Positions 4,141-26,502 of a DNA stretch of 33,002 nucleotides are shown here, one piece after another. The notes beneath the pieces are model-generated. The model saw only the letters and a list, made by a program, of their open reading frames with translations. It had not been told where the DNA came from and did not search any database. The position numbers and the translations under genes are program-made. This DNA comes from Actinomycetota bacterium (GTDB taxonomy: Bacteria; Actinomycetota; Actinomycetes; Actinomycetales; Kineosporiaceae). The first letter of the stretch is position 1. Every line of letters begins with the position of its first letter. The stretch is taken from the NCBI GenBank assembly GCA_030837345.1, contig JAUPKQ010000012.1:1-33002 (forward strand), read 5' to 3'.

Positions 4141-4690
4141 CCGGTGTCCCGTTCTGCTCGCCCGGCGATACCTGGTCGTCGTCCGCGGCGGTCTCACGCA
4201 TCTCCGTGAAGACGAACTGCCGGTAGGCCCAGAAGCGGAAGAGGGTGCCCAGCGCGAGGCCGATGACGCTCCCGCTGATGTTGTCGGCGAGGGCGGACTG
4301 CAGGCCGAGGACGTAGTGCGAGAACCACAGGCATCCGACCGAGATCAGGAGGCCGCCCACGTTCATCACGACGAACAGGACGAACTCGGCCTGGATCGCG
4401 GCTCGCCGCCGGTGCCGGAAGGTCCAGTAGCGGTTCCCGATCCAGGCGACGACGGTGGCGACGGCGACCGAGATGACCTTCGAGAGGAGGGGTTTGTGCG
4501 CGAGCGGCGCGTCCGTCGCCGGCCAGACGCCGGTGCGGAGCACGTTGTAGACATAGAGGTCGACGACGTAAGCGATGGCGCCGACGGCACCGAACTTGAC
4601 CATTTCTCGGTAGACGACGTCAACGGCTCCGCGGAGCGCCCTGGTCCAGCGCAACCTGGACCGGCGTGCCGGCGCCTCGTCCGTGGTCAT
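4124..4690 (-). CDS. GtrA-family membrane protein
   Basis: About 188 residues with four membrane segments. The GtrA-type core begins at VKFGAVGAIAYVVDLYVYNVL. It contains NRYWTFRHRRRA between spans two and three, and near the end FRFWAYRQFVF, both typical of the family. GtrA-like proteins are small membrane proteins thought to help move polyprenyl-linked sugars across the membrane for cell-surface polysaccharides, which suits the neighbouring locus. The start is uncertain. ATG 4690 gives a normal family length but has no clear Shine-Dalgarno. GTG 4858, in frame upstream, has one (GGGGAGCAGGA) but would add about 56 Ala/Pro-rich residues whose third codon positions are unusually A/T rich for this genome. 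I prefer 4690. The 3' end overlaps the large membrane protein gene by 17 bp, tail to tail. Confidence 0.85.
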   Translation of the reverse strand: MTTDEAPARRSRLRWTRALRGAVDVVYREMVKFGAVGAIAYVVDLYVYNVLRTGVWPATDAPLAHKPLLSKVISVAVATVVAWIGNRYWTFRHRRRAAIQAEFVLFVVMNVGGLLISVGCLWFSHYVLGLQSALADNISGSVIGLALGTLFRFWAYRQFVFTEMRETAADDDQVSPGEQNGTPVTEER

Positions 4691-4938
4691 CTCAAGAGAG
4701 AGGTCACACGCTGACGACGTGGCCTCCGGGGCCGGGGCCGTGGCTCGGGCCGCGGCTTGGGCTGGGGCTGGGACCGAAGCTGGAGCTGGGGCTGGGAGTG
4801 GCGTCGTCGCTCGGTCCTGGGTCACTGACTGCTGGCGCGTCGTCCTGTTCAAGGCCACGTCGAATCCTGCTCCCCTCGGCGGCTGGTACCGCCTCGGCGC
4901 TGGCTGGCTGTGAGCTGCGCCCCTCCCCGTCCCGAAAG

Positions 4939-4966
4939 AGGTTACCCGCAGTCGCCGGGGTAACCT
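4939..4966. promoter_or_regulatory. Palindrome with mirrored -10 boxes between gtrA and purK
   Basis: AGGTTACCC at 4939-4947 and GGGTAACCT at 4958-4966 are perfect 9-bp inverted arms around a 10-nt spacer. TAACCT (4961-4966) lies six bases before the purK GTG at 4973, the spacing of a leaderless actinobacterial promoter. The same hexamer occurs on the minus strand (4944-4939), pointing toward gtrA. The palindrome may be an operator over two divergent promoters. No regulator is identified in the window. Confidence 0.5.
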
Positions 4967-4972
4967 GCGCCA

Positions 4973-6169
4973 GTGCCCCATCTTGAGCGCCCTTCTGGTG
5001 GCTTCCCGGTCGTCGGCATCGTCGGCGGCGGCCAGCTGGCCCGGATGACGCAACCCGCTGCTATTGCCCTGGGCATTCGTCTGCGTCTGTTGGCCGAGGA
5101 CTCGGCATCGAGCGCGGCTCAGGTAATCCCCGACACCCAGGTGGGGGAACCGCATGACGCCGTCGGGGTGACCGCCTTCGCCCACACGTGTGACGTGCTC
5201 ACGTTCGATCACGAGCATGTGCCGACGCCGGTGCTGAGATCGATCGAGGCCGAAGGGATCGTCGTCCGGCCCGGAGCCGACGCCCTGGAACACGCTTCGG
5301 ACAAAGCGGTCATGCGAAGCCGCTTGACGGAACTTGGTGTCCCCTGTCCGCGCTGGCGGCTCGTGACGGAACTCACGGAGCTGGAGGAGTTCGGCGACGA
5401 GGTGGGCTGGCCGCTGGTGCTCAAGACACCGCGGGGTGGATACGACGGCAAGGGCGTCCTGGTCCTGGACTCGCTCGACGAGGCGAAGGACTGGCTCGAC
5501 CGCGCCCACCGGCCGGACGCCGATCACGCTCCGGTGCTGCTCGCCGAGGAGCTCGTCTCCTTCCGGCGGGAGCTCGCCGCTCTCGTGGCGCGCAGCCCGT
5601 CCGGTCAGGCGGCGGCCTGGCCGGTCGTCGAGACCCTCCAGACCGACGGGGTCTGCCGTGAGGTCGTGGCCCCCGCGCCGGGTCTCGCGCCGGAAACGGC
5701 GGTCGCGGCGACGGAGATCGCCTTGCGGATCGCGGGTGAGCTGGGCGTCGTCGGGGTCCTCGCCGTCGAGATGTTCGAGGTGGACGGCCCGGACGGGGTG
5801 CCGTCCGTCGTCGTCAACGAGCTGGCGATGCGGCCTCACAACTCCGGTCACTGGAGCATGGACGGCGCGGTGACCGGTCAGTTCGAGCAGCATCTGCGGG
5901 CGGTGCTCGACCTCCCGCTGGGGGATCCCCGGCCGAGGGCGCCGTGGTCGGTGATGGTCAACGTCCTCGGAGGGGAGCATGCGGAGCTGTACTCCGCCTA
6001 CCTCCACGTCATGGCCCGGGATCCTGGGGTCAAGGTGCACCTGTACGGCAAGGAAGTCCGTCCGGGCCGGAAGATCGGGCACGTGACCGTGTCGGGCGAC
6101 GACCTGGACGACGTCCGGGCCCGTGCCCGTCACGCGGCGGACTTCATCACGGGAATCATCGACGAGTGA
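4973..6169 (+). CDS. purK: N5-carboxyaminoimidazole ribonucleotide synthase PurK
   Basis: ATP-grasp enzyme of 398 residues that makes N5-CAIR from AIR, ATP and bicarbonate in purine biosynthesis; cytosolic. The N-terminal pre-ATP-grasp fold shows [11 protein letters not shown] at residues 15-25. The central ATP-grasp region has [13 protein letters not shown] (glycine-rich ATP loop) and [17 protein letters not shown]. Metal- and substrate-site residues follow in VEMFEV and [13 protein letters not shown], the family hallmark for purine ribonucleotide binding. The length is normal for actinobacterial PurK. The GTG start leaves essentially no leader after the TAACCT -10 box, so the mRNA is probably leaderless. 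purE begins 22 bp downstream, an operon order common in actinobacteria. Regulation may act through the palindrome overlapping the promoter. Confidence 0.96.
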
Positions 6170-6191: not shown

Positions 6192-6737
6192 ATGAGCGGC
6201 GGCCCGGTGGTGGGCGTGGTGATGGGGTCGGACTCCGACTGGCCGGTGATGGAGCAGGCCGCGAAGGCCCTGGAGGAGTTCGGGGTCGAGTACGAGGCCG
6301 ACGTCGTCTCCGCGCACCGGATGCCGGTGCAGATGATCGAGTACGGCCGGTCGGCCCACGACCGGGGGCTGAAGGTGATCGTCGCTGGGGCCGGAGGGGC
6401 GGCCCACCTTCCGGGCATGCTCGCCGCGGTGACCCCGCTTCCGGTGATCGGGGTTCCCGTCCCGCTGCGCCATCTGGACGGCATGGACTCGTTGCTGTCG
6501 ATCGTGCAGATGCCGGCCGGGGTGCCTGTGGCCACCGTCTCCGTGGCCGGTGCCCGCAACGCCGGGCTGCTCGCCGTCCGGATGCTCGCGGCCGGGACGG
6601 ACGACGAGTCGGCGCGGCTGCGGACGGCGATGCTCGCTTTTCAGGACTCTTTGCGCGAGCAGGCCACCGTGAAGGGTGAACGCCTGCGGGTGCGGCGGTC
6701 GGGTGCCGCGGGCTTGGGATTCACTCCGGGGAGATGA
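6192..6737 (+). CDS. purE: N5-CAIR mutase PurE (class I)
   Basis: 181-residue enzyme that converts N5-CAIR, the PurK product, to CAIR. The class I signature is clear: [12 protein letters not shown] (phosphate and substrate loop) near residues 10-21, VVSAHRMP with the catalytic-site histidine, [15 protein letters not shown], and [12 protein letters not shown] 6192 is chosen because a GAGGGG Shine-Dalgarno sits just upstream and the protein then begins directly at the first beta strand. An earlier in-frame start would run back into purK. The C-terminal tail after [11 protein letters not shown] is a little longer than in most PurE proteins and looks unstructured. The pairing with purK shows the bacterial two-step route rather than the single-enzyme AIR carboxylase route. 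Confidence 0.96.
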
Positions 6738-7028
6738 GGGAGATCGCCGCGGACGAGGCTCGGAACAAGAGCTGAACAGGGCTAAGTCGCCGATCGGCGG
6801 TAAGTCTCCGTGGTGCGTGGCGAGAACGGTCGAGTTGAGAGAGTTTCATCGTGGAAGCCTCTCGAAGAATTTTCAGAAGAAGGCCTGAGGGCGATGTCCC
6901 CGGGTCCGCGAGATCATGACCCACCTGCGGGATCGCTGTGGACTGCAGGTTTGGCGGATACATGCTCGAATGCAATTGCCTGAGGCCACTAAGATCTTTC
7001 GTGTCGTTTCCCCTGGTTTCGGTGGGCA

Positions 7029-7058
7029 TTGCCGTTCCGATATCCGGTCCCTTAGGCT
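7029..7058 (+). promoter_or_regulatory. Promoter for the DUF4360 gene pair
   Basis: TTGCCG at 7029-7034 and TAGGCT at 7053-7058 are separated by 18 bp. This is the best -35/-10 pair I find in the window, and the -10 is the same hexamer as before galE. Transcription would begin near 7065, giving a leader of about 128 nt before ATG 7193. Confidence 0.5.
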
Positions 7059-7111
7059 CCCGCCACAGCTCGGCGTCGGACTGCCCAAGTTGACGATGCG
7101 GCCTGAAGACA

Positions 7112-7135
7112 CCATCAGTGACCCGATACTGATGG
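7112..7135. promoter_or_regulatory. 8-bp inverted repeat in the DUF4360 leader
   Basis: CCATCAGT at 7112-7119 and ACTGATGG at 7128-7135 are perfect arms around 8 nt. It lies about 50 bases downstream of the predicted transcription start and 58 bases before the ATG. It could be a repressor site or a leader hairpin. A second small hairpin, GGCAG-GACA-CTGCC, follows at about 7151-7164. Confidence 0.35.
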
Positions 7136-7192
7136 GCAAGGGCCGGTAACGGCAGGACACTGCCATTCTGGGTGAACGGGAGCACAAACCTC

Positions 7193-7876
7193 ATGACAAC
7201 ACGTCTGACAGGCATGCGTCGTGTCGGTCTCTTAATCTCGGCCGTCACAGTCGCCGTCATGGCCGGAGGCGTTTCCACGGCCTCCGGTGCCACGGCCGGG
7301 GCCACGGTAGATGCCGCGGCCCTTCCTTCCGACGCGGTCACCGCCAAGGTGGTGACGATGAACGGCTCCGGGTGCCCCGCCGGGACCGCGTCGGTCAGGG
7401 CGAACTCGGACAACACAGGTTTTGCGGTCACGTACAACCAGTACGTGGCGACCGCGGGTGCGGAGGCCGACAACGTCGATTTCCGCAAGAACTGCCAGCT
7501 CGCCGTCCAGCTGGGCATCCCCTCGGGCTTCACGTACGCGATCGCCCGGGCCGATTACTCCGGGTGGGGGCATCTGGCCACCGGCGCCACCGGTCTGCAG
7601 CGCGCCAACTACTACTTCCAGGGTGCGAGTAGCAACTCGTTCTCGGATCACAAGTTCACTGGTCCGTTCTCAGGCCGGTGGCAGGCCAGCGACGAGACCG
7701 ACATGGCGGAAATGGTGTACGCCCCCTGTGGGGAGACCCGTTTCCTCAACATCAACACTGAACTCCGGGTGAATGACGGATCAGCTGACCCCAAGACCAC
7801 CAGCGCCTTGTCGATGCGGTACGCCAGTGGTTCCGTCAGCACGATCTACAACCTCTCCTGGAAGCAGTGTCCCTGA
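7193..7876 (+). CDS. Secreted DUF4360 protein, copy 1
   Basis: 227-residue exported protein of the DUF4360 family, known from actinomycetes and fungi with no established function. A classical signal peptide is visible: basic RLTGMRR, then hydrophobic VGLLISAVTVAVMAG, and an Ala/Ser/Gly-rich exit near residues 30-36. The mature domain shows the family marks NGSGCPAGTASV (C61), DFRKNCQL (C101), GFTYAI, ANYYFQG, APCGETRFLNINTELRV (C179) and LSWKQCP (C226). The four conserved cysteines suggest two disulfides outside the cell. ATG 7193 is chosen over GTG 7172 because GGGAG lies about ten bases before it. A paralogue follows 54 bp downstream, so the two are probably one operon driven by the promoter at 7029-7058. 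Its function is unknown. Confidence 0.9.
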   Translation: MTTRLTGMRRVGLLISAVTVAVMAGGVSTASGATAGATVDAAALPSDAVTAKVVTMNGSGCPAGTASVRANSDNTGFAVTYNQYVATAGAEADNVDFRKNCQLAVQLGIPSGFTYAIARADYSGWGHLATGATGLQRANYYFQGASSNSFSDHKFTGPFSGRWQASDETDMAEMVYAPCGETRFLNINTELRVNDGSADPKTTSALSMRYASGSVSTIYNLSWKQCP

Positions 7877-7930
7877 CCCGCGGTCCGGTTTTCAGAGATC
7901 CGTCGCGGGAATTGAGATGAGGAGGCAGTC

Positions 7931-8587
7931 ATGTTTAGTGCATTGGGTATGGCCGGAGCGGTGGCTTCGTTACTCGGTTCGATGTTGATGGGGCCCTCCG
8001 GCACCAGCGTCGTGCTGACGGATCCCCCGGATGACAAGATCGTCATTGATCTGATGACGGTGATCGGTTCGGGGTGCCCGAGCGGGACGGCAGCGGTCGC
8101 GGTCTCTCCGGACAACACCGCCTTCACTGTCACCTACAGTGACTATCTTGCGCAGGTCGGTGTCGGCGCGAAGCCCACCGACTGGCGTAAGAACTGCCAG
8201 CTCAACCTGATCGTCCATGTTCCGCAGGGTTTCACCTACGCGATCTCGTCCGTGGACTACCGAGGTTTCGCCTCCTTGCAGGCCGGTGCCTCCGTGGTCG
8301 AGAGGGCTGCGTACTACTTCCAGGGGTCCCAGGACAACCAGGTCATCACGCACACCTTCAAGGGTCCCTTGGAGGACAACTGGCAGGTGACCGACGTGAC
8401 GGACATCGGCGCGATGGTCTTCGCCCCCTGTGGTGAGCTGCGGAACTTCAACATCAACACCGAGCTGAGGGTGTCCGCGGGAACCTCCGACGTGAAGAAG
8501 ACGACAAGCTTCTTCACGATCGACTCGGTGGACGGCGAGCTGGACACCACGTACCACTTCGCCTGGAAGGAATGCCCGAAGAAGTAG
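7931..8587 (+). CDS. Secreted DUF4360 protein, copy 2
   Basis: 218-residue paralogue of the preceding gene. It keeps the same cysteine pattern, GSGCPSGTAAV (C49), WRKNCQL (C89), APCGELRNFNINTELRV (C167) and AWKECP (C215), plus GFTYAI and AAYYFQG. A strong GAGGAGG Shine-Dalgarno fixes ATG 7931. The N-terminus (MFSALGMAGAVASLLGSMLMG) is hydrophobic but has no Lys or Arg before residue 36, so it lacks the positive n-region of a normal Sec signal. It may still be exported, or it may stay anchored. The two copies differ most in the N-terminal region and in loop residues, as expected for an old duplication that has diverged. The gene ends before a strong terminator hairpin at 8646-8671. Its function is unknown. 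Confidence 0.9.
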   Translation: MFSALGMAGAVASLLGSMLMGPSGTSVVLTDPPDDKIVIDLMTVIGSGCPSGTAAVAVSPDNTAFTVTYSDYLAQVGVGAKPTDWRKNCQLNLIVHVPQGFTYAISSVDYRGFASLQAGASVVERAAYYFQGSQDNQVITHTFKGPLEDNWQVTDVTDIGAMVFAPCGELRNFNINTELRVSAGTSDVKKTTSFFTIDSVDGELDTTYHFAWKECPKK

Positions 8588-8645
8588 GTCGTCCGGGTAC
8601 ATGATCGGTGTTGTTGATCGAGCCGCTCGCCGCATGAGTGGTGCC

Positions 8646-8671
8646 GGTGACACCTCCGCGGAGGTGTCACC
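8646..8671. terminator. Terminator hairpin after the DUF4360 pair
   Basis: A perfect 26-bp palindrome: an 11-bp stem of GGTGACACCTC and its complement around CGCG, centred 71 bases after the second DUF4360 stop codon. It has no following T-run, which is usual for actinobacterial intrinsic terminators. Confidence 0.7.
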
Positions 8672-8755
8672 ACCCGATCGGCTCCGCCGCGGGCCGACGT
8701 GAGTCGGACCGGATGCAGGGCTCCCGGCATCCTCTCAGGCCGGGTGGTGTGCCCT

Positions 8756-8789
8756 CGGTGGTCCTCCGTTCTCGCCGGAGGGACCACCG
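8756..8789. terminator. Second hairpin, terminator-like
   Basis: CGGTGGTCCTCCG at 8756-8768 pairs with CGGAGGGACCACCG at 8776-8789, with one bulged G and a 7-nt loop. It may be a back-up terminator for the DUF4360 operon or a leader structure of the downstream lipoprotein gene. Confidence 0.4.
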
Positions 8790-8806
8790 GGGGCATGCGT
8801 TTGTCT

Positions 8807-8825
8807 CTGCGAAACTCTTTCGCAG
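8807..8825. promoter_or_regulatory. Operator-like 19-bp palindrome
   Basis: CTGCGAAACTCTTTCGCAG has perfect 8-bp arms around CTC. The arm size and tight spacing are typical of dimeric helix-turn-helix regulator sites. It overlaps a possible -35 (TTTCGC, 8818-8823). It could equally be a short hairpin. No matching regulator is evident nearby. Confidence 0.35.
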
Positions 8826-9053
8826 TGCTCGGCATCGGGAGTATCGTCCGGGACTCGTGGACCCGGTCGGGGCCTTCGGGGGCCTGATCGATCTCGGGGA
8901 GGTTCGTGCTCACCGTTTGACGAGAGCGTCACCGCCGCTGACGGAACCACAGGGCGAAACCGGAACCAACCGGTGTCCTGGGTATCTACCGGTCACCGTG
9001 GACCGGGATGCGCGTTCCGTGTGCGTCGGGACCGAAAGGGTCAGGTACCGACA

Positions 9054-9707
9054 ATGTTGTCGTCTCGATCGTTCCGGCCGCTGTCATCGATCGCCCCGGG
9101 AGCGGCGGTTCTTCTGGTTCTCGCCCTCGCAGGCTGCGGGGGCGTGTCGTCCGCGGCGCCGAAGGGCCCCACCCCGAATGCCCGTGACATGCGTCTCTCG
9201 GCCCGGATCTCGGCGTCCGCCAAGGCGATCACCATCGACTACACCCTGATGAACGACGGTGCGGACATGGTCGTGGCCTTCACCGGAATCCCCGCGAAGG
9301 ATTCGGTAGCCGTGGCGAAAGTCGATCCGAACGCCGTCTACGTCACGGCCGAGGACGGCGTCGTCCAGCTCTCCAAGCAGGTCTTCGCTCATGAGGGCGA
9401 GGGGCCGGATCCATTCCTCGTGCGCGGCGTGGCGCTGGTCGGCGGCGAGTCGATGACGGAAAAGGTGACGGTTCCTCTGCCCCTCGTGTCACGCACCCCG
9501 TATCCCGCATCGGATTCCGCGAAGGCCACGCTTCCTTCCCCGGTGAAGTCCCTCCGGTTCTGTGTCGGGGTCGCTCTCCAGAACCAGCTCAACCCCCGCC
9601 AGCCAGACCCGTCGGACAGCGACACCCATCTGGCCTACTCGCACGATTCGGGCACCGCCGGAGCCCAGTTGCTCGTGTGCTCGCCGACGGCCGCCATGCC
9701 GTCCTGA
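9054..9707 (+). CDS. Putative lipoprotein of unknown function
   Basis: 217 residues. The N-terminus has arginines, a hydrophobic stretch (AAVLLVLALAG) and a lipobox LAGC with C28 as the expected lipidated cysteine, so the protein should be anchored on the outer face of the membrane. The mature part reads as beta-rich with alternating hydrophobic residues (ITIDYTLMNDGADMVVAFTG and similar), suggesting an immunoglobulin-like or DUF4352-like sandwich, but I cannot name a family. Two late cysteines (in RFCVGVAL and LLVCSP) could form a disulfide. ATG 9054 is preferred because it places the signal peptide at the N-terminus; an upstream in-frame start at 8973 would put 27 Arg-rich residues before it. 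It follows the DUF4360 operon but is separated from it by a terminator. It converges on the LCP gene with only 24 bp between stop codons. Confidence 0.82.
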   Translation: MLSSRSFRPLSSIAPGAAVLLVLALAGCGGVSSAAPKGPTPNARDMRLSARISASAKAITIDYTLMNDGADMVVAFTGIPAKDSVAVAKVDPNAVYVTAEDGVVQLSKQVFAHEGEGPDPFLVRGVALVGGESMTEKVTVPLPLVSRTPYPASDSAKATLPSPVKSLRFCVGVALQNQLNPRQPDPSDSDTHLAYSHDSGTAGAQLLVCSPTAAMPS

Positions 9708-11398: not shown

Positions 11399-12391
11399 AT
11401 GACGTGGCTGGTCACCGGCGGTGCCGGATACATCGGATCACATGTTGCGCGTTGCTTTCTCGAATCGGGGCGTGACGTGGTGGTGCTCGACGACCTGTCG
11501 AGCGGGCACCGGGAGTTCGTGCCGGAACGCGCCCGGTTCGTGGAGGGGTCCGCGGTCGACCCGAAGGCGGTGGAGGCGGCGCTGCGCGGCGCCGACGGCG
11601 AGCCGGTGACCGGCGTCGTCCACCTCGCCGGGTTCAAGTACGCGGGGGTGTCCGTCGACCGGCCGCTCCACACGTACGAGCAGAACGTCACCGCCATGCA
11701 GGTCCTCCTCGACCGCATGCTGGACGCCGGGGTGCCCCGGTTCGTCTTCTCGTCCAGCGCCGCGACGTTCGGCACCCCGGACGTCGACCTCGTCACCGAG
11801 ACCACGCCGACGCTGCCGGAATCCCCCTACGGGGAGACCAAGCTGATCGGGGAGTGGCTGCTGCGCGACGTCGGGCGCGTCCACGGTCTGCGGCACACCT
11901 CGCTGCGGTACTTCAACGTCGTCGGGTCCGGGTTCCCGGAGCTCTACGACACCAGCCCCCACAACCTGTTCCCCCTGGTGCTGAAGGCGCTGACCTCCGG
12001 CGGCGTGCCCCAGGTGCGTGGCACGGACTACCCCACCCCGGACGGTTCCTGCGTGCGCGACTACGTGCACGTCCTCGACATCGCCCGCGCCCACGTCGCC
12101 GCGGCCGCGGCGATGGAGGAGGGCCGCCAGCTCGAACGTGTCTACAACCTGGGCTCGGGATCAGGGCTCTCCGTGCTCCAGATCATGGACGCCGTCGCCC
12201 GGGTGACCGGTATCCCCTTCGAGCCGGAGATCACCGACCGGCGTCCCGGGGACCCCGCCCGCATCGTCGCCTCGGGCAAGCTCGCCGCCCGTGACCTCGG
12301 CTGGGCGAACACCCATTCCGTCGACGACATGGTCGCGTCGGCGTGGGCCGCGTGGAGCAGGGTGTCGGGATCAGACCCGGGGCCGGCCTAG
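11399..12391 (+). CDS. galE: UDP-glucose 4-epimerase
   Basis: 330-residue NAD-dependent short-chain dehydrogenase that interconverts UDP-glucose and UDP-galactose in the cytosol. Motifs are VTGGAGYIGSH (NAD-binding, residues 5-15), DDLSSGHR (31-38), HLAGFKYAGVSV (75-86), the catalytic SSSAATFG (118-125) and YGETK (Y144, K148), then LRYFNVVG and VRDYVHVLDIA. The C-terminal RRPGDPARIVASGKLAARDLGW is the usual sugar-binding end of GalE. It diverges from the CoA-binding gene and is expressed from a probable leaderless promoter. Its 3' end overlaps the UDP-glucose dehydrogenase gene by 21 bp, tail to tail. In this neighbourhood it probably supplies UDP-galactose for surface polysaccharide as well as serving galactose catabolism. 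Confidence 0.95.
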   Translation: MTWLVTGGAGYIGSHVARCFLESGRDVVVLDDLSSGHREFVPERARFVEGSAVDPKAVEAALRGADGEPVTGVVHLAGFKYAGVSVDRPLHTYEQNVTAMQVLLDRMLDAGVPRFVFSSSAATFGTPDVDLVTETTPTLPESPYGETKLIGEWLLRDVGRVHGLRHTSLRYFNVVGSGFPELYDTSPHNLFPLVLKALTSGGVPQVRGTDYPTPDGSCVRDYVHVLDIARAHVAAAAAMEEGRQLERVYNLGSGSGLSVLQIMDAVARVTGIPFEPEITDRRPGDPARIVASGKLAARDLGWANTHSVDDMVASAWAAWSRVSGSDPGPA

Positions 12392-13714
12392 GGCCCGGTA
12401 GGTCCACCCGGCGGCGCGCCAGGCGGCCGGGTCGAGGGCGTTGCGGCCGTCGAGCATCGTCCGCCCCCGGACCAGGGTGCCGAGAACGTGCGGGTCGAGG
12501 TCGCGGTAGAGCTGCCACTCGGTGAGCAGCAGGACGGCGTCAGCCCGCTCGCACGCCTCCTCGACGGTGGAGGCGAACTGGAGTTCGGGCCACGTCCGCC
12601 GGGCGTTCTCGACGGCCGCGGGGTCGGTGACGACGACGTCCGCGCCCTGGAGCTTGATCTGGGCGGCGACGTTGAGGGCCGGTGAGTCACGGACGTCGTC
12701 GCTGTCGGGTTTGAAGGCCGCGCCGAGGACGGCGACCTTCCGGCCGAGGAACGACCCCCCGAGGACCTCCCGGGCGAGCTCGACCATCCGGCTCCGGCGG
12801 CGCATGTTGATCGCGTCCACCTCCCGCAGGAAGGTCAGGGCCTGGTCGGCCCCCAGCTCGCCCGCCCGGGCCATGAAGGCGCGGATGTCCTTGGGCAGGC
12901 AGCCGCCGCCGAATCCCAGCCCGGCGCTGAGGAACTTCGGGCCGATCCGCTCGTCGTGGCCGATGGCGGTCGCCAGCTCGGTGACGTCGGCGCCCGCGGC
13001 CTCGCAGACCTCGGCCATCGCGTTGATGAACGAGATCTTCGTCGAGAGGAAGGCGTTGGCCGCGGACTTGACGAGTTCGGACGTCGGGTAGTCGGTCGCT
13101 ATCACCGGGACGCCCGCGGCGATGGCGTCGGCGTAGACGGCGTCGAGGAGATCCCGGGCCTTCCGGGCGGCACCGGGGCCGGCGGGAATCCCGTAGACGA
13201 TCCGGTCGGGCCGCTGGGTGTCGGTGACGGCGTGTCCCTCACGCAGGAACTCCGGGTTCCACGCGAGCATCGCACCGGGCACCCGGTCGGAGATCCGCGC
13301 GGACAGGCGCTCGGCCGTTCCGACCGGCACCGTGGACTTCCCGACCACCAGGTCACCGGGCGCCAGATGAGGCAGCAACGCGGAGACGGCGGCGTCCACA
13401 TAGGTGGTGTCCGCGGCGAATTCGCCCTTGCGCTGCGGGGTTCCCACGCAGACGAAGTGCACCCAGGGAGTCCGCTCGCCGCCGCCCGGGCGGGCGAGCT
13501 CCGCGACGTCGTGGGTGAACCGCAGGCGCCCGGACGCCATCGCCCGTTCGAGGAGGGCCGGCAGGCCGGGTTCGAAGAAGGGAGGGCGGCCCGCCGACAG
13601 CTCTTTGATCTTGGATTCGTCGACGTCGACGCCGATGACGTGATGCCCCAGATCCGCCATGCACGCGGCATGGACCGTTCCGAGGTACCCGCACCCGATG
13701 ACCGAGATGAACAC
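12371..13714 (-). CDS. ugd: UDP-glucose 6-dehydrogenase
   Basis: 447-residue NAD-dependent enzyme oxidising UDP-glucose to UDP-glucuronate. Motifs in order are VIGCGYLGTVHAACMADLGH (NAD Rossmann, residues 5-24), FVCVGTPQ (87-94), GKSTVPVGT (125-133), NPEFLREGHAV (153-163), SELVKSAANAFLSTKISF with catalytic-site Lys (212-229), GFGGGCLPKD with nucleophile C272 and K275, and GAAFKPDSDDVRDSPAL in the C-terminal NAD domain. It is slightly longer than many homologues but complete. The GDP-mannose and UDP-GlcNAc dehydrogenases share these motifs, and the call as UDP-glucose dehydrogenase rests on overall resemblance. The phosphatase gene upstream on the same strand ends nine bases before this start, so the two are likely co-transcribed. 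UDP-glucuronate would feed the polysaccharide genes at either side. Confidence 0.93.
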   Translation of the reverse strand: MFISVIGCGYLGTVHAACMADLGHHVIGVDVDESKIKELSAGRPPFFEPGLPALLERAMASGRLRFTHDVAELARPGGGERTPWVHFVCVGTPQRKGEFAADTTYVDAAVSALLPHLAPGDLVVGKSTVPVGTAERLSARISDRVPGAMLAWNPEFLREGHAVTDTQRPDRIVYGIPAGPGAARKARDLLDAVYADAIAAGVPVIATDYPTSELVKSAANAFLSTKISFINAMAEVCEAAGADVTELATAIGHDERIGPKFLSAGLGFGGGCLPKDIRAFMARAGELGADQALTFLREVDAINMRRRSRMVELAREVLGGSFLGRKVAVLGAAFKPDSDDVRDSPALNVAAQIKLQGADVVVTDPAAVENARRTWPELQFASTVEEACERADAVLLLTEWQLYRDLDPHVLGTLVRGRTMLDGRNALDPAAWRAAGWTYRALGRPRV

Positions 13715-21188: not shown

Positions 21189-21261
21189 GGCGGAAATGCG
21201 GGGGGCCTTTCGACGGACCTGGTGGGTCCGGCCCCTGCTGGTCGGCTACCGTCATCCCCTG

Positions 21262-22380
21262 ATGCTCGACGAACCGATGACGACGTCCCCCGGACCCGCG
21301 GGGGTACCCACCACGGCCGACGTGGTCGACTGGCCAGCGGTGTCGGTCGTCGTCCCCGTGCTGAACGAGGAGCGGCACCTCCGCGAGGCGGTGCACCGCA
21401 TACTCGAACAGGACTATCCGGGTCCCCTGGAGATAGTCCTGGCTCTCGGTCCCTCCGAGGACCGAACGGATGAGGTAGCTGCCAGCCTGGCTTCCCAGGA
21501 TCCACGAGTGATCACGGTCCGTAACCCCAGTGGGCGAACTCCCTCCGCGCTCAACGCCGCGATCCGGGCGTCCCGGTACCCGGTGGTCGTGCGGGTCGAC
21601 GGGCACGGTCTGCTGGCTCCCGGGTACATCCGGACCGCCGTTCGTCTCCTGGAGCAGACGGGCGCGGCGAACGTCGGCGGGGTGATGGCGGCGGAGGGTG
21701 TCACCGACTTCCAGCGGGCTGTCGCGGCCGCGATGACCTCTGTGTTCGGGGTCGGGGGAGCGCGATTCCACACCGGGGGCCAGGCCGGACCCGCCGAGAC
21801 CGTCTACCTCGGGGTCTTTCGCCGGGAGGTGCTCGAACGGCTCGGCGGCTACGACGAGAGTTTCATCCGGGCACAGGACTGGGAATTGAACCACCGCATC
21901 CGAAGCGGTGGCGATCTCGTCTGGTTCAGCCCTGATCTGTCCGTCACCTACCGGCCGAGGGCGTCGCTCCGGGCCCTCGGGAAGCAGTACCTCCAGTACG
22001 GCCGGTGGCGTCACGTCGTCATGCGGCAGCATCCCGGGACGGCGAATGCCCGCTATCTGGCTCCTCCTGTGGTCGTGGCGGCGTGCGTGGCAGGCCTCGT
22101 GGCGGCCCCCCTCACCCCGTGGACCCTTGTCGTCCCGGTGGGGTACGGCGCCGGGGTCGTCGTCGTGTCCGTGATGATCGGACGAGGGCTGCCGCTCCGT
22201 TCCCGGCTCCTGCTTCCCGCCGTCCTGGGGACCATGCACTGGGCGTGGGGAATCGGTTTCCTCACTAGCCCCCGGTCGCTGGCGGCACGTGATCCTCGAC
22301 CGGCTGATGTCGCTGCTCCCGGGACTGCGGGTGCTGGTGCGGCGGTGAACCCGGCGGCGTCGGGTCCGTCCCCGAAGTGA
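21262..22380 (+). CDS. Family 2 glycosyltransferase, ExoA-like
   Basis: 372 residues with a cytoplasmic GT-A catalytic domain and C-terminal membrane segments, as in the succinoglycan enzyme ExoA. Motifs are VSVVVPVLNEERHL (27-40, nucleotide-sugar binding), EIVLALGPSEDRTDEV (57-72), SALNAAIRAS (95-104), VVRVDGHG (109-116, the ExoA-style replacement of the DxD metal site), GGVMAAEG (139-146), and acceptor motif RAQDWELNHRIRSGG (203-217). QYLQYGRWR (242-250) leads into hydrophobic spans at about 266-305 and 315-335. It probably adds a sugar to a lipid-linked intermediate on the inner membrane face. The donor and acceptor cannot be told. ATG 21262 is favoured; ATG 21196 would add 22 residues and ATG 21277 would drop five. 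The GT4 gene follows after 28 bp. Confidence 0.88.
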   Translation: MLDEPMTTSPGPAGVPTTADVVDWPAVSVVVPVLNEERHLREAVHRILEQDYPGPLEIVLALGPSEDRTDEVAASLASQDPRVITVRNPSGRTPSALNAAIRASRYPVVVRVDGHGLLAPGYIRTAVRLLEQTGAANVGGVMAAEGVTDFQRAVAAAMTSVFGVGGARFHTGGQAGPAETVYLGVFRREVLERLGGYDESFIRAQDWELNHRIRSGGDLVWFSPDLSVTYRPRASLRALGKQYLQYGRWRHVVMRQHPGTANARYLAPPVVVAACVAGLVAAPLTPWTLVVPVGYGAGVVVVSVMIGRGLPLRSRLLLPAVLGTMHWAWGIGFLTSPRSLAARDPRPADVAAPGTAGAGAAVNPAASGPSPK

Positions 22381-22408: not shown

Positions 22409-23578
22409 ATGCGTGTGCTGATGCTGGTCGCGACCTCGCTGGCCTCGGACACCCGGGTCCTGCGGGAGGCGACCACTCTCGCGGTCGCCGGCCACGAGGT
22501 GCATGTGATCGGTAAGCAGGTCCCCCTGGACTTCGTCGCCCCGGACGGAGTGACGTGGTCCTCGGCCGGGGCGAGTTCGGTCTTCCGTGCCGAGGGAGCG
22601 GCCTCCCTGTCGGGGAAGGCTCTTTCGCCCCCCGTGAGGGCGGCACGGTGGATGATGTTGCCAACCCACCGCAACCAGGCGTTTTCCCGATGGGCGGCCG
22701 CGGCCGCCGAGGATGCCGGACATCGCACGTTCGACGTCGTTCACGCCCATGACTTCACCGCCCTGGAGGTCGGCGCGAGGCTTGCGGTCTCGCGAAGAGT
22801 TCCGTTCGTCTACGACAGCCACGAGTTCTGGAGCGGACGCCCCCGGGTCGGGCGGCCGACTCCGACCCAGGCTCGGCGCGAGGCGCGGATCGAGGCCGGG
22901 CTCGGCAGCCGGGCGGCCGCTGTCATCACCGTGGGGGACGGTGTTGCCGAGACGTTGCGCGCCCGCTACGGATGGACGCATATCACCGTCGTGCGGAACA
23001 CGTTCCCGATCCCTGACCGGCTCCCGGCCGCGCCTCCGACCCCCGTCGGGGCCGTGTACGCGGGCCGGATCGCGCCCTACCGGGAGCTGGAGGTCATCGC
23101 CGAGGCCAGCATGCGGATCGACATGCCGATCACGCTCATTGGACCGGCCGACACCACCTGGCTGGCCCGCTTCAACCCCGGCCGGGCCACCGTTCGCCCG
23201 GCGTTGCCGGTGGACGAGGTCGATGTGCTGCTCACCAGTGCTGGGCTCGCCTTGGTGACTCACAGTGACCGTTGGATCAATCATCGACTCGCGATGCCGA
23301 ACAAGCTCTTTCACGCCGTGCGGGCCGGAATTCCGGTAGTCGCCACGGATGTGGGTGAATTAGGGGCTTTGGTTCGTCGTCACGGGGTCGGGGAACTGTA
23401 CCGTCCGGGGGACGCCGAAAGCCTCGCCAGAGCCGTCGAGGCAGCGGTCCGGCGCTACCCGCAGCTCGTGGCGGCGGTGCACGAAGCCGCACCGGAGCTG
23501 TCCTGGCAGAAGGACGCCACCGTTCTGTTGGATCTCTACGCCCGGCTCCCGGTCTCCGGGGCCAAAGCCGGACGGTGA
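22409..23578 (+). CDS. GT-B glycosyltransferase (GT4-like)
   Basis: 389 residues with a two-Rossmann GT-B fold. The N-terminal half begins MRVLMLVATSLASDTRVLRE, the usual acceptor-side opening with SDTRV, and has DVVHAHDFTAL and VYDSHEFWSGR. The C-terminal half carries VYAGRIAPYREL, PITLIGPAD and the donor-site stretch MPNKLFHAVRAGIPVVATDVGELGALV, where the nucleotide-sugar would bind. A Shine-Dalgarno (AAGGGCGAGGG) supports ATG 22409. It sits between the GT2 gene and the ABC transporter genes and is probably part of the same biosynthetic unit. Sugar specificity is not readable from sequence. The paralogous type at 25387 shares the DTRV/DARM-like opening and H-E-x-Y/F motif, so both belong to one broader subfamily. 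Confidence 0.88.
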   Translation: MRVLMLVATSLASDTRVLREATTLAVAGHEVHVIGKQVPLDFVAPDGVTWSSAGASSVFRAEGAASLSGKALSPPVRAARWMMLPTHRNQAFSRWAAAAAEDAGHRTFDVVHAHDFTALEVGARLAVSRRVPFVYDSHEFWSGRPRVGRPTPTQARREARIEAGLGSRAAAVITVGDGVAETLRARYGWTHITVVRNTFPIPDRLPAAPPTPVGAVYAGRIAPYRELEVIAEASMRIDMPITLIGPADTTWLARFNPGRATVRPALPVDEVDVLLTSAGLALVTHSDRWINHRLAMPNKLFHAVRAGIPVVATDVGELGALVRRHGVGELYRPGDAESLARAVEAAVRRYPQLVAAVHEAAPELSWQKDATVLLDLYARLPVSGAKAGR

Positions 23579-23617
23579 TCAATGTGTCAACTCGGCAGGT
23601 TGCCGCCATCGCGTCGG

Positions 23618-23623
23618 TATCCT
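23618..23623 (+). promoter_or_regulatory. Candidate -10 box before the ABC exporter genes
   Basis: TATCCT at 23618-23623 lies in the 76-bp gap upstream of the permease. Transcription would start near 23630, leaving a 25-base leader that contains AAGAAGGA as the ribosome site for GTG 23655. No clear -35 is seen, so read-through from the upstream genes is also likely. Confidence 0.35.
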
Positions 23624-23654
23624 TAGCCCACCTGCGAACGTCAAGAAGGAACCC

Positions 23655-24560
23655 GTGAGCCAAGCCCGATCGAGCACCGCCGAGGACGAGTACAACGGCG
23701 AGCGTCACGTCTATGAACCTCACCGCGCGGGCCTGCCACCGCTGGTCCCGTACTTCCGTGAGTTGTGGCGACGCCGTACCTTCGCCTTCGAGCTCTCCCG
23801 CACGAGCATGCATGCCGCCAACACCGACACCGTGTTCGGTCAGGCCTGGCTCGTGATCAATCCTTTGCTGCTGTCCGGGGTGTACTACATCCTCGTCGAC
23901 ATCATCGGCGGGGGGGCGAGCAAGGCGGACCCCGGTGCCTTCTTCGCATTGTTGACCTCGGGGTTGTTCCTCTACTACTACATCACCGGGTCGATGTCCG
24001 CCGGTACGACGGCGGTGACTCAGGGTGGGCGACTCATCCTGAACACGTCGTTCCCGAAGATGTTGCTCACGGTGTCGACGGTGTACACGGCATTCCGGCG
24101 GTTCCTGCCGACATTGATCGTGTACTTCGGGATCCATCTGATCACCGGACAGAAGGTGGGATTCCACCTGCTCTGGCTGATTCCGATCCTGATCATGGCG
24201 ACGATGATGGGCCTCGGGCTGGCGAATCTGTTCGCCACTCTCCAGGTGTACTTCCGGGACACGGCGAGCTTCCTGCCGTACGTCATCCGGATCTGGCTCT
24301 ACCTGTCGCCGGTGCTGTGGACGATCGAGATGGCCAAGGAACGTGCCGGGAAGGGCGGCCAGATGTATCAGCTGCTGCTCACCTGGAGCCCGATCAATCC
24401 CATGTACGGCATCCTCGGCGCACAGGGCGAGGTCCTCGTGGGCGGTACCTCGCCGTCCTGGGACTTGCTCGCCTACGGGTTCGGATGGTCTGCTCTGATT
24501 CTGGTCGCAGGGTCTTTGCTCATGATGTCGAGGGAGCGTGAGTTCGCTGTCCGCCTCTGA
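23655..24560 (+). CDS. ABC-2 polysaccharide exporter permease (Wzm/TagG type)
   Basis: 301-residue membrane subunit of an ABC exporter for lipid-linked polysaccharide. The cytoplasmic N-terminus includes LVPYFRELWRRRTFAFELSR (amphipathic interface helix). Six membrane segments follow at about 64-84, 95-116, 136-160, 172-194, 208-225 and 272-290. NTDTVFGQAWLVINPLL and the late SPVLWTIEMAKERAG ... LLTWSPINPMYGILG are typical of the O-antigen/teichoic-acid exporter permeases. The AAGGA ribosome site seven bases before GTG 23655 fixes the start. The ATPase gene overlaps its 3' end or begins directly after it, so the two subunits are made together. Flanking glycosyltransferases indicate that the cargo is a surface polysaccharide. 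Confidence 0.93.
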   Translation: MSQARSSTAEDEYNGERHVYEPHRAGLPPLVPYFRELWRRRTFAFELSRTSMHAANTDTVFGQAWLVINPLLLSGVYYILVDIIGGGASKADPGAFFALLTSGLFLYYYITGSMSAGTTAVTQGGRLILNTSFPKMLLTVSTVYTAFRRFLPTLIVYFGIHLITGQKVGFHLLWLIPILIMATMMGLGLANLFATLQVYFRDTASFLPYVIRIWLYLSPVLWTIEMAKERAGKGGQMYQLLLTWSPINPMYGILGAQGEVLVGGTSPSWDLLAYGFGWSALILVAGSLLMMSREREFAVRL

Positions 24561-25356
24561 GGTCTCTCCGACCATGACCAGTCTCAGCCAGGGCGCCGCC
24601 ATCTCGGTCAAGGACGTCCATGTCCAATACCGGATGAACCTCCAGAAGAACCCGACGCTCAAGAACACCATCGTCAGGCTCGGCCGACGTGAGCGTACGG
24701 TCCGGGTCTTCGAGGCCCTGGACGGCGTCAGCTTCGACGTACCCCACGGCAAGGTCATGGGGGTGATCGGCGCCAACGGTGCCGGTAAGTCCACCTTGAT
24801 GCGGACGGTTGCGGGCATCCTCGCGCCCTCCCAGGGCCGGATCGAGGTCAATGGACGGGTCAGCACCTTGCTGGCCCTCGGAGTCGGGTTCAACTCGGCG
24901 CTTTCCGGGCGTGAGAACGTCACCCTCGGTGGTCTCGCCGCAGGTCTCTCACGGGCTGAGATCAAGGAGAAGTACGCGGAGATCTCGGCTTTCGCGGAGA
25001 TCGAGGACTTCATGGACATGCCGATGCGCACGTACAGCTCAGGCATGTACAGCCGCCTGGCGTTCGCGGTCGCCGTCAACATGGATCCGGACATCCTGAT
25101 CATCGACGAGGCGTTGTCCGCCGGTGACGCGCACTTCAAGAAGAAGGCCAGCGACAAGATGGCCGAACTCGTCTCGAAGGCTCGCACGATGCTCGTCGTC
25201 AGCCATGCCCTGGGCACCATCAAGGAACTCTGTGACGAGGCGATCTGGCTGCACAAGGGCAAGCTGATCAGGCGGGGTGAGCCCGATGAGATCATCGCGG
25301 CCTACACGAAGTTCCTGCAGGTCGGTGAGGACGCCATCACGCTCGAGGACTTCTGA
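24538..25356 (+). CDS. ABC polysaccharide exporter ATPase (Wzt/TagH type)
   Basis: 272-residue ATP-binding subunit paired with the preceding permease. Features are Walker A GANGAGKST (78-86), the Q-loop region around VGFNSALSGRENV (116-128), signature YSSGMYSRLAFAVAV (166-180), Walker B ILIIDEAL (186-193), D-loop SAGD and the switch histidine in VVSHA (H223). The N-terminal insertion RMNLQKNPTLKNTIVRLGRRER before the first strand is characteristic of the Wzt/TagH polysaccharide-export group. It lacks the C-terminal carbohydrate-binding domain of long Wzt proteins, so chain-end recognition is not expected. GTG 24538 overlaps the permease gene by 23 bp. ATG 24574 (residue 13) is a realistic alternative, because the Shine-Dalgarno before 24538 is too close to be ideal. 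Confidence 0.93.
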   Translation: MSSLSASEVSPTMTSLSQGAAISVKDVHVQYRMNLQKNPTLKNTIVRLGRRERTVRVFEALDGVSFDVPHGKVMGVIGANGAGKSTLMRTVAGILAPSQGRIEVNGRVSTLLALGVGFNSALSGRENVTLGGLAAGLSRAEIKEKYAEISAFAEIEDFMDMPMRTYSSGMYSRLAFAVAVNMDPDILIIDEALSAGDAHFKKKASDKMAELVSKARTMLVVSHALGTIKELCDEAIWLHKGKLIRRGEPDEIIAAYTKFLQVGEDAITLEDF

Positions 25357-25386
25357 GTCGTGCGGGGGCAGCGGCCCGAGGGCCTG

Positions 25387-26502
25387 ATGGTCGACGTCTC
25401 TGTCGTCACGAGCGGTCATGATGTCGCCGATGCCCGGATGCATCGTGAGGTCGCGGCGCTTCGGCGCCGTGGCCTCACGGTGGAGGTCCTCGGCCTCGGC
25501 GATGTCGGCGCGGGCCCCGAGGGCGCCGACATCCGGACCTGGCCTCGTCGTTCGATGGTTTTCAGGGCGGTGCACGCCGTCCGTCTGCCGTTCCTCGCCC
25601 GGGGACGGGTCCTGCTGACACTTGATCCGGACGTCGTGCCCGCTGGCGTCGTGGCGAGTCTGCTGCGCCGTCGTCGGCTCGTGGCGGATGTGCATGAGGA
25701 CTACGTCGCCCTCTTGGCCGACCGGGCGTGGGTGCCCGGCCGGTTGAGGGGCGCCCTTCAACGGCTTGCCGCCGCCTGCGTGGGCCTCGCCGGCCGGGCC
25801 TCGCTCACGGTCGTCGCCGACGACCACGTCCCGCCCCGGGGGAACCGGTGCCGCCGCCGTCTGGTGGTTCGGAATGTTCCCGATCCGGCTCTTCTGCCGA
25901 CTCCTTCGCCCCAGGTCGACGATCCGGCGCCCCGGGCCGTGTATGTGGGGGACGTCCGGACCAGCCGGGGCCTTCGCGTGATGGTCGAGGCGATCGCTCT
26001 CGCCCCCTGCTGGCGGCTGGACGTCGTCGGGCCGGTCGCGGCAGCGGACCAGCAGTGGGTCAAGGACCGGATGGAACGCCCGGACGTCGCAGGAAGAATC
26101 ACTCTTCACGGTCGCAAACCCCCTCGTGCTTCGTGGGAGATCGCCGCCAGCGCCTCGGTAGGCATGATCCTTGCGCAGGACACGCCTGCCTTCCGTGACG
26201 CTGTGCCGACGAAACTGTACGAGTACCTGGCCACCGGACTGGCCGTGCTGGCGACTCCGTTGCCCAGGGTTGCCGCGCTGCTCGACGGTTCCCTCGCCGG
26301 TGCGCTCGTCACCGAGGCCACTGCTGCCGCGGAAGTGCTCCGTGGCTGGTCGGCGGCACCGGCCGAGCTCGCCAAAGCGAGGCGGGCTGCGCTTGAGTGG
26401 GCGGATCGCGAACTGCGCGACGCCAATCCCTATGACGTGCTCGCAGCGGAGGTCGCCGTTCTCGCCGAGACGCCGGTAGGCGGCAGCCGGGGCCGTTCCT
26501 GA
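25387..26502 (+). CDS. GT-B glycosyltransferase
   Basis: 371 residues, a GT4-like glycosyltransferase related in plan to the one at 22409. The N-terminal Rossmann half opens VDVSVVTSGHDVADARMHREV and includes ADVHEDYVALL. The C-terminal half has AVYVGDVRTSRGLRVMVEAI, LDVVGPV, ITLHGRKPP and the donor-binding segment AVPTKLYEYLATGLAVLATPLP, with the conserved Glu in YEYLATG. ATG 25387 follows GAGGG at a good distance. GTG 25360, four bases after the ATPase stop, would add nine residues. It ends the plus-strand polysaccharide unit. Its last 73 bp overlap the convergent gene at 26430. Sugar specificity is unknown. Confidence 0.85.
   Translation: MVDVSVVTSGHDVADARMHREVAALRRRGLTVEVLGLGDVGAGPEGADIRTWPRRSMVFRAVHAVRLPFLARGRVLLTLDPDVVPAGVVASLLRRRRLVADVHEDYVALLADRAWVPGRLRGALQRLAAACVGLAGRASLTVVADDHVPPRGNRCRRRLVVRNVPDPALLPTPSPQVDDPAPRAVYVGDVRTSRGLRVMVEAIALAPCWRLDVVGPVAAADQQWVKDRMERPDVAGRITLHGRKPPRASWEIAASASVGMILAQDTPAFRDAVPTKLYEYLATGLAVLATPLPRVAALLDGSLAGALVTEATAAAEVLRGWSAAPAELAKARRAALEWADRELRDANPYDVLAAEVAVLAETPVGGSRGRS

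What the first reader, a model, noticed from the sequence alone, without database searches (positions are those of the whole stretch)
7193..8587. Tandem pair of secreted DUF4360 proteins
The two neighbours share four conserved cysteines and the NINTELRV core but have diverged over much of their length. DUF4360 has no known function and occurs in both actinomycetes and fungi. A co-transcribed, diverged pair hints at a hetero-complex or two different targets outside the cell.
Basis: partly seen in the sequence, partly recalled or inferred. Interest (0 to 1): 0.55.

Follow-up and report, generated by a model that had tools for sequence, protein, structure and literature searches.

The report
Tandem pair of secreted DUF4360 proteins
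Two neighbouring genes for look-alike exported proteins are really there, and such pairs have arisen and been kept several times in mycelial bacteria, most likely as duplicated extracellular binding proteins rather than as halves of one machine.

Summary
Confirmed: two complete DUF4360 genes, 7193-7876 and 7931-8587 (+), 54 bp apart, sharing four cysteines and NINTELRV, cores 48% identical. The refuter (pair only in this strain) fails: 44 of 80 related named loci hold two or three DUF4360 genes. In an even draw, though, only 4 of 30 other DUF4360-bearing genomes have a tandem pair and 22 have one gene. Pairs arose more than once (one old duplication rejected, p-AU 0.0002). Members mostly resemble counterparts elsewhere more than each other. 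The upstream copy is the more diverged in 43 of 47 loci. Fold: disulfide-locked beta-sandwich of the Bdellovibrio Bd1399 type (8OKH, Z 13.8), beyond that only weakly carbohydrate-binding-module-like. A required hetero-complex is not supported: single genes are common, another pair in this genome has decayed, and the linked model is inconclusive. In Streptomyces an element TTGNCATGNNCATG precedes DUF4360 genes and secreted peptidases, LPMOs and other hydrolases, suggesting an exoenzyme regulon; the window's genome lacks it. Best reading: duplicated secreted non-catalytic binding proteins, one conserved, one diverged. The family is known; recurrence, polarity and regulon are new leads.

The parts
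7193..7876 (+). Upstream DUF4360 gene (P0001, 227 aa): N-terminal signal-like segment, then domain 48-226; predicted disulfides C61-C101 and C179-C226
   Evidence: AF2 pLDDT 86.8, pTM 0.83; 8OKH Z 13.8; disulfide pairing by analogy with Bd1399
7931..8587 (+). Downstream DUF4360 gene (P0002, 218 aa), the family-typical copy; uncharged hydrophobic N-terminus
   Evidence: core 74% identical to a gene of genome G435
7877..7930 (+). 54-bp gap between the two genes; no stable fold beyond shuffles, no terminator-like site
   Evidence: z 0.52
7920..7925 (+). Shine-Dalgarno AGGAGG, 5 nt before ATG 7931
   Evidence: sequence
7178..7182 (+). Weak Shine-Dalgarno-like GGGAG before ATG 7193
   Evidence: sequence
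6738..7192 (+). A+T-richer upstream region (59% GC against 70.5% for the window), presumably holding the promoter; no sigma-70-type site, and the best match to the Streptomyces CATG element has 3 mismatches
8646..8671 (+). Perfect 13-bp inverted repeat 58 bases after the second stop codon, possible end of transcript (no T run)

Best explanation
The two genes are paralogous exported proteins made from one short transcript. Each folds outside the cell into a disulfide-locked, elongated beta-sandwich with no recognisable catalytic centre, and works as a binding protein towards an extracellular polymer or surface, most likely a glycan. The downstream copy keeps the family-typical surface; the upstream copy has diverged to a different ligand or partner. 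They act side by side (duplication and specialisation), not as required halves of one complex. Shown: genes, family, fold class, recurrence and polarity of such pairs. Inferred: export, one transcript, disulfides, binding, ligand class, division of labour.
For: Family and four Cys. Fold: P0001 model matches Bd1399 8OKH at Z 13.8, 3.2 A over 159 of 166 residues; below it come jelly-roll carbohydrate-binding modules (TmCBM61 Foldseek E 3e-5; TmCBM27 Z 7.5), a weak level. Pairs: 44 of 80 loci; 50 of 52 adjacent pairs less alike than each is to its best counterpart elsewhere; one old duplication rejected, p-AU 0.0002; upstream copy further from the single-copy profile in 43 of 47 loci, in the majority within 9 of 9 lineages; 57 of 74 single genes closer to a downstream than to an upstream copy. 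P0001 groups (99/94) with one member of three divergently arranged pairs in Micromonospora, Actinophytocola and Paractinoplanes, so this kind of partnership persists in another gene order. Regulation in Streptomyces: DUF4360 shares an upstream element with secreted M14, S8, LPMO10, amidase and chitinase genes.
Against: No ligand was shown. CBM-like matches are at a level common for any beta-sandwich (tool note), and TNF-like and capsid jelly rolls score as high. Pfam finds no CBM. The exoenzyme element is absent from the window's genome (0 sites). The fungal relative VdSCP27 is an immunity elicitor whose activity survives loss of its cysteines (PMC7170778), which does not point to glycans. The nine lineages were grouped by me after seeing the tree.
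Confidence: 0.45

Rival explanations
1. The two proteins form a hetero-dimer or hetero-oligomer outside the cell, for example through edge strands as in the Bd1399 crystal dimer, and need each other.
For: Pairs are repeatedly kept close and codirectional; P0001-type genes lie next to an ordinary DUF4360 gene in 4 of 4 cases seen, in two gene orders; Bd1399 crystallised as a dimer of uncertain meaning (PMC10792529).
Against: 22 of 30 other DUF4360-bearing genomes have one match; a pair in the same genome has a decayed downstream member; linked model pTM 0.55, inconclusive.
Confidence: 0.15
2. Neutral tandem duplication or gene dosage: more of the same protein, later drifting.
For: Tandem pairs have arisen more than once; some lineages keep both copies alike, e.g. 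79% in L050; a decayed copy exists in this genome.
Against: 0 of 52 adjacent pairs are sisters on the tree and 50 of 52 are less alike than each is to its counterpart elsewhere, so pairs are mostly old and both copies constrained; all four Cys and most invariant residues are kept in both window copies.
Confidence: 0.2
3. Secreted peptidase inhibitors or accessory factors that protect or aim secreted subtilases and carboxypeptidases.
For: In Streptomyces the CATG element precedes M14 (12 of 68) and S8 (5 of 68) peptidase genes as well as DUF4360 (11 of 68).
Against: The element also precedes LPMO10, amidase, chitinase and PTS genes; no inhibitor fold among the best matches; element absent from this genome.
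Confidence: 0.1
4. Interaction effectors acting on other organisms (plants, fungi, prey bacteria), as proposed for fungal and Bdellovibrio relatives.
For: VdSCP27 elicits BAK1/SOBIR1-dependent immunity (PMC7170778); OmSSP2 induced about 4000-fold in mycorrhiza (PMC5938622); Bd1399 linked to predation (PMC10792529).
Against: Found across common soil actinomycetes, one copy in many Streptomyces-type genomes; the fungal effects may be recognition of a surface protein rather than its job.
Confidence: 0.1

Closest known systems
Bd1399 of Bdellovibrio bacteriovorus (PDB 8OKH) and its DUF4360 relatives Bd2850/Bd2851
   Same: Secreted beta-sandwich with two conserved disulfides in the same Cys order; fold match Z 13.8; Bd2850/Bd2851 carry consecutive numbers, so probably also neighbours (inference from the names)
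   Different: About 10% sequence identity; not found by sequence in the PDB; linked to predation
VdSCP27 of Verticillium dahliae and OmSSP2 of O. maius (fungal DUF4360)
   Same: Same Pfam domain, four Cys, small secreted proteins
   Different: Fungal, reported as single genes, plant-interaction roles; no bacterial-type tandem reported in the passages read
Tandem DUF4360 pairs of Streptomyces, Lentzea, Saccharothrix, Amycolatopsis, Actinomadura, Plantactinospora
   Same: Two (or three) neighbouring genes, upstream copy more diverged
   Different: The window's P0001 belongs to a distinct branch shared with three divergently arranged pairs
Jelly-roll carbohydrate-binding modules (CBM61, CBM27, CBM32, CBM16)
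   Same: Beta-sandwich arrangement
   Different: Weak scores, no sequence match, no ligand known

Membership tests
DUF4360 (Pfam PF14273) | Score above the curated cut-off over the whole domain | tested here: met
   197.6 and 232.1 bits, cut-off 27, profile 2-178 and 1-178 of 178
DUF4360 (Pfam PF14273) | Four conserved cysteines in the order of Bd1399's two disulfides | tested here: met
   Cys spacing 40/78/47 in P0001 against 37/78/36 in Bd1399; invariant in the 16-row alignment; pairing itself not shown
DUF4360 (Pfam PF14273) | Elongated beta-sandwich as in 8OKH | tested here: met
   Foldseek E 7e-9, prob 1.00; VIA Z 13.8 over 159 residues
DUF4360 (Pfam PF14273) | Exported protein | tested here: inconclusive
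   Hydrophobic N-termini read from sequence; no predictor run; 51 of 126 relatives have no K/R in the first 12 residues
Carbohydrate-binding modules | Sequence match to a CBM family | tested here: not met
   Pfam at E up to 1 gives DUF4360 only for both proteins
Carbohydrate-binding modules | Jelly-roll fold | tested here: inconclusive
   CBM rows at Z up to 7.5 and TM about 0.3, tied with TNF-like and capsid folds
Carbohydrate-binding modules | Binds a glycan | not testable with these tools
   needs binding assays
Required two-protein secreted complex | Partner always present | tested here: not met
   22 of 30 other genomes with DUF4360 in an even class draw have one match; for the P0001-type alone 4 of 4 have a neighbour
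Required two-protein secreted complex | Confident predicted interface | tested here: inconclusive
   linked model pTM 0.55, no PAE or coordinates given

The most novel reading that the evidence does not exclude
DUF4360 proteins are non-catalytic core members of an actinomycete exoenzyme regulon (secreted peptidases, LPMOs, wall hydrolases) under an undescribed CATGNNCATG operator, and lineages repeatedly and independently build a polarised two-gene unit in which the upstream copy diversifies while the downstream copy stays conserved: a recurrent specialisation of extracellular binding proteins.
Probability: 0.3. Interest if true: 0.65.

Novelty: new member of a known kind. Interest (0 to 1): 0.42.

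Why it matters
DUF4360 spans soil actinomycetes, predatory Bdellovibrio and plant-associated fungi and has no agreed job. A recurrent tandem unit with a fixed polarity, plus a candidate operator shared with secreted hydrolases, turns the question into direct tests: what each copy binds, and whether one regulator fires both DUF4360 and the exoenzymes.

Tried and rejected
Sequence search of the PDB with P0001 and a 44-row profile gave chance hits only (PARP2 E 0.49; a cobalamin protein E 0.03); the fold link came only by structure. Foldseek rows matching the whole linked model (vicilins, oxalate decarboxylase and others; rmsd about 20 A, TM about 0.1) were rejected as chance pairings of two sandwiches.

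Neighbouring genes: a crude gene caller over 101 stretches found no non-DUF4360 cluster in more than 9 of 101, mostly near-species synteny, so no recurrent partner enzyme is encoded next door. The gap hairpin folds no better than shuffles (z 0.52). WhiG, BldN, SigB and SigR-type promoter strings (recalled consensus) gave 0 of 110 upstream regions, SigE-type no excess (5, expected 6.2), SigU-type 2 against 1.2; a housekeeping-type string gave 5 against 0.1 expected. A search of 396 genomes of the phylum with the P0001-type profile showed no further P0001-type gene; its top rows outside the window were ordinary DUF4360 genes. Convergent changes in upstream copies: 152 against 87 deviations at 109 conserved columns over nine lineages, but no single diagnostic site.

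Papers: DUF4360 with Streptomyces is held by one paper, the CASP15 one (listing); DUF4360 alone by 6 and PF14273 by 2 (listings). Motif strings with Streptomyces: none. All absence claims are limited to the held open-access library and these searches.

Full report
What is there. The window holds two complete genes on the + strand, 7193-7876 and 7931-8587. Both are DUF4360 over the whole domain (197.6 and 232.1 bits, cut-off 27). The 54-bp gap carries AGGAGG 5 nt before the second ATG, and no terminator-like site was found. A perfect 13-bp inverted repeat lies at 8646-8671, after the second stop. Core identity of the two is 48%, and all four cysteines and NINTELRV are shared. The pair lies between purK/purE and an unclassified putative lipoprotein gene followed by a LytR-CpsA-Psr gene. 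GC over 6651-9100 is 60-65% in 700-bp steps against 70.5% for the window, which fits foreign origin or simply secreted-protein composition.

Own genome and relatives. The genome has six matches: this pair, genes on C153, C103 and C51, and a remnant on C103. The C103 remnant follows an intact gene on the same strand and is a decayed copy with pieces in different frames. Among 13 genomes of the family three have DUF4360, the window's included; among 58 relatives three have it. In an even draw of 394 genomes of the class 31 have it, the window's included. Of the other 30, 22 have one match and 8 have more; 4 of the 30 (G194, G323, G353, G400) have a tandem pair. Genus g59, which supplies 28 of the 30, is taken to be Streptomyces because an upstream region of G361 is identical over the stretch shown to that of the named S. 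actinomycinicus.

Pairs elsewhere. In 42 of these 80 loci there are two DUF4360 genes and in 2 there are three. This set is ranked by likeness to P0001 and so may over-represent pairs; the even draw above is the fairer rate. Of 52 adjacent pairs (window included) 49 are codirectional and 3 divergent; 42 of the 49 gaps are 33 to 140 bp. None of the 52 is a sister pair on the tree, and 50 are less alike than each member is to its best counterpart elsewhere. So most pairs are old and both copies are constrained.

Origins and polarity. On a tree of 75 members the pair members cluster within Streptoverticillium-type Streptomyces (98/92; the label is mine), Actinomadura (98/96) and G323 (100/99). 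Forcing all upstream copies of 22 pairs into one clade is rejected (p-AU 0.0002). Pairs therefore arose several times, or were reset by gene conversion. Against a profile of 67 single-copy genes the upstream copy scores lower in 43 of 47 codirectional loci, and in the majority within each of nine lineages that I defined after seeing the tree. Of 74 single genes 57 are closer to a downstream than to an upstream copy. P0001 (264.7 bits against 329.4 for P0002) is the diverged copy here. It groups (99/94) with one member of the three divergently arranged pairs of Micromonospora, Actinophytocola and Paractinoplanes; all four carry Met-Arg where single-copy members mostly have Met-Asp (P0001 208-209). 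The partnership thus exists in two gene orders, although P0001 is a long branch.

Structure. AlphaFold2 on the P0001 domain with 44 rows gives pLDDT 86.8 and pTM 0.83, almost all beta. It matches Bd1399 (8OKH) at Foldseek E 7e-9 and VIA Z 13.8, 3.2 A over 159 residues. The Cys order fits Bd1399's two disulfides (PMC10792529, section read). Next come TmCBM61, CBM27, CBM32 and CBM16, but also TNF-like and capsid folds at Z 6.5-8, a level that proves nothing. The two genes read as one chain with 18 paired rows (window included) gave pLDDT 75.5 and pTM 0.55: two good domains, relative placement not established. No interface scores or coordinates were available.

Regulation, an unexpected lead. Upstream regions of first or single genes in the fetched loci are rich in CATGTGCATG: 30 of 129 have at most one mismatch against 2.4 expected. 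None of the 47 stretches before second genes (last 100 bp) has it within two mismatches, as expected if the second gene has no promoter of its own. The pattern TTGNCATGNNCATG was then sought in 8 genomes chosen because their DUF4360 gene carries it (24 sites) and in 41 genomes of the same genus drawn evenly (111 sites, against 47 for the reversed control). Of 132 distinct sites 87 are intergenic by a crude gene caller and 68 have a gene start within 400 bp, 43 of these with a hydrophobic N-terminus. Of 30 control sites examined out of 47, 12 are intergenic, 8 have such a gene and 2 a hydrophobic N-terminus. The 68 genes include 12 M14 carboxypeptidases, 11 DUF4360, 5 S8 subtilases, 3 LPMO10, 3 PTS EIIB, 2 amidases, and single chitinase GH19, M28, A4, M48, ribonuclease and rhamnogalacturonan lyase genes; 43 families in all, of which 25 were listed, and also non-secreted ones such as MinD/ParA-like (4) and a transposase (2). 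None of the 8 control genes is a secreted hydrolase. The DUF4360 count is partly circular, since the motif came from DUF4360 promoters and 4 of the 11 are from the chosen genomes; the hydrolases are independent. The window's genome has no site, so for this organism the regulon is not shown. No held paper names the motif with Streptomyces.

Published function. VdSCP27 (DUF4360, 214 aa, four Cys) is secreted, triggers BAK1/SOBIR1-dependent immunity, and adds to virulence only together with VdSCP126 (PMC7170778, passages read). OmSSP2 is induced about 4000-fold in mycorrhiza (PMC5938622, passage). A Coprinopsis member is induced (value 4.6) by mechanical damage (PMC4704728, passage), and five DUF4360 genes rise and one falls in a fruiting mutant (PMC10949477, passage). 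None gives a molecular mechanism.

Verdict. The best reading is duplicated, exported, non-catalytic binding proteins with one conserved and one diverging copy. A required hetero-complex is the weaker reading. The family is known; the recurrent polarity and the exoenzyme element are the new parts and can be tested.

Noticed in passing
L042:3876-4169 and 4463-5140 (own genome, contig C103, minus strand): An intact DUF4360 gene followed by a decayed second copy with pieces in different frames: a second tandem pair whose downstream member was lost.
   Followed up: yes
Upstream of DUF4360 genes in Streptomyces loci, e.g. L072, L078, L087, L176: Element TTGNCATGNNCATG (or its CATGTGCATG core) shared with secreted peptidase, LPMO, amidase and PTS genes; apparently an exoenzyme operator not named in the papers searched.
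   Followed up: partly
Upstream of single-copy Streptomyces-type DUF4360 genes, e.g. L023, L025, L029, L137: A second enriched 8-mer, CCTACGAT (14 of 110 upstream regions), 70-270 bp before the start.
   Followed up: no
window 7931-8035: P0002 starts with an uncharged hydrophobic segment (no K/R before residue 36); 51 of 126 relatives also lack K/R in the first 12 residues, unusual for a Sec signal.
   Followed up: partly
window 9054-9707: Putative lipoprotein gene just downstream of the pair with no Pfam match.
   Followed up: no
window 23101-25550: A second stretch of low GC (61-66% against 70.5%).
   Followed up: no
window 12371-13714, 11399-12391, 21196-22380: UDP-sugar dehydrogenase, sugar epimerase and glycosyltransferase genes near a LytR-CpsA-Psr gene: a probable surface-polysaccharide region.
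   Followed up: no
L011, L012 (G001) and L005 (own genome C51): Very diverged DUF4360 members on long branches; the L005 match stops at profile position 169 of 178 and the protein has five Cys.
   Followed up: no
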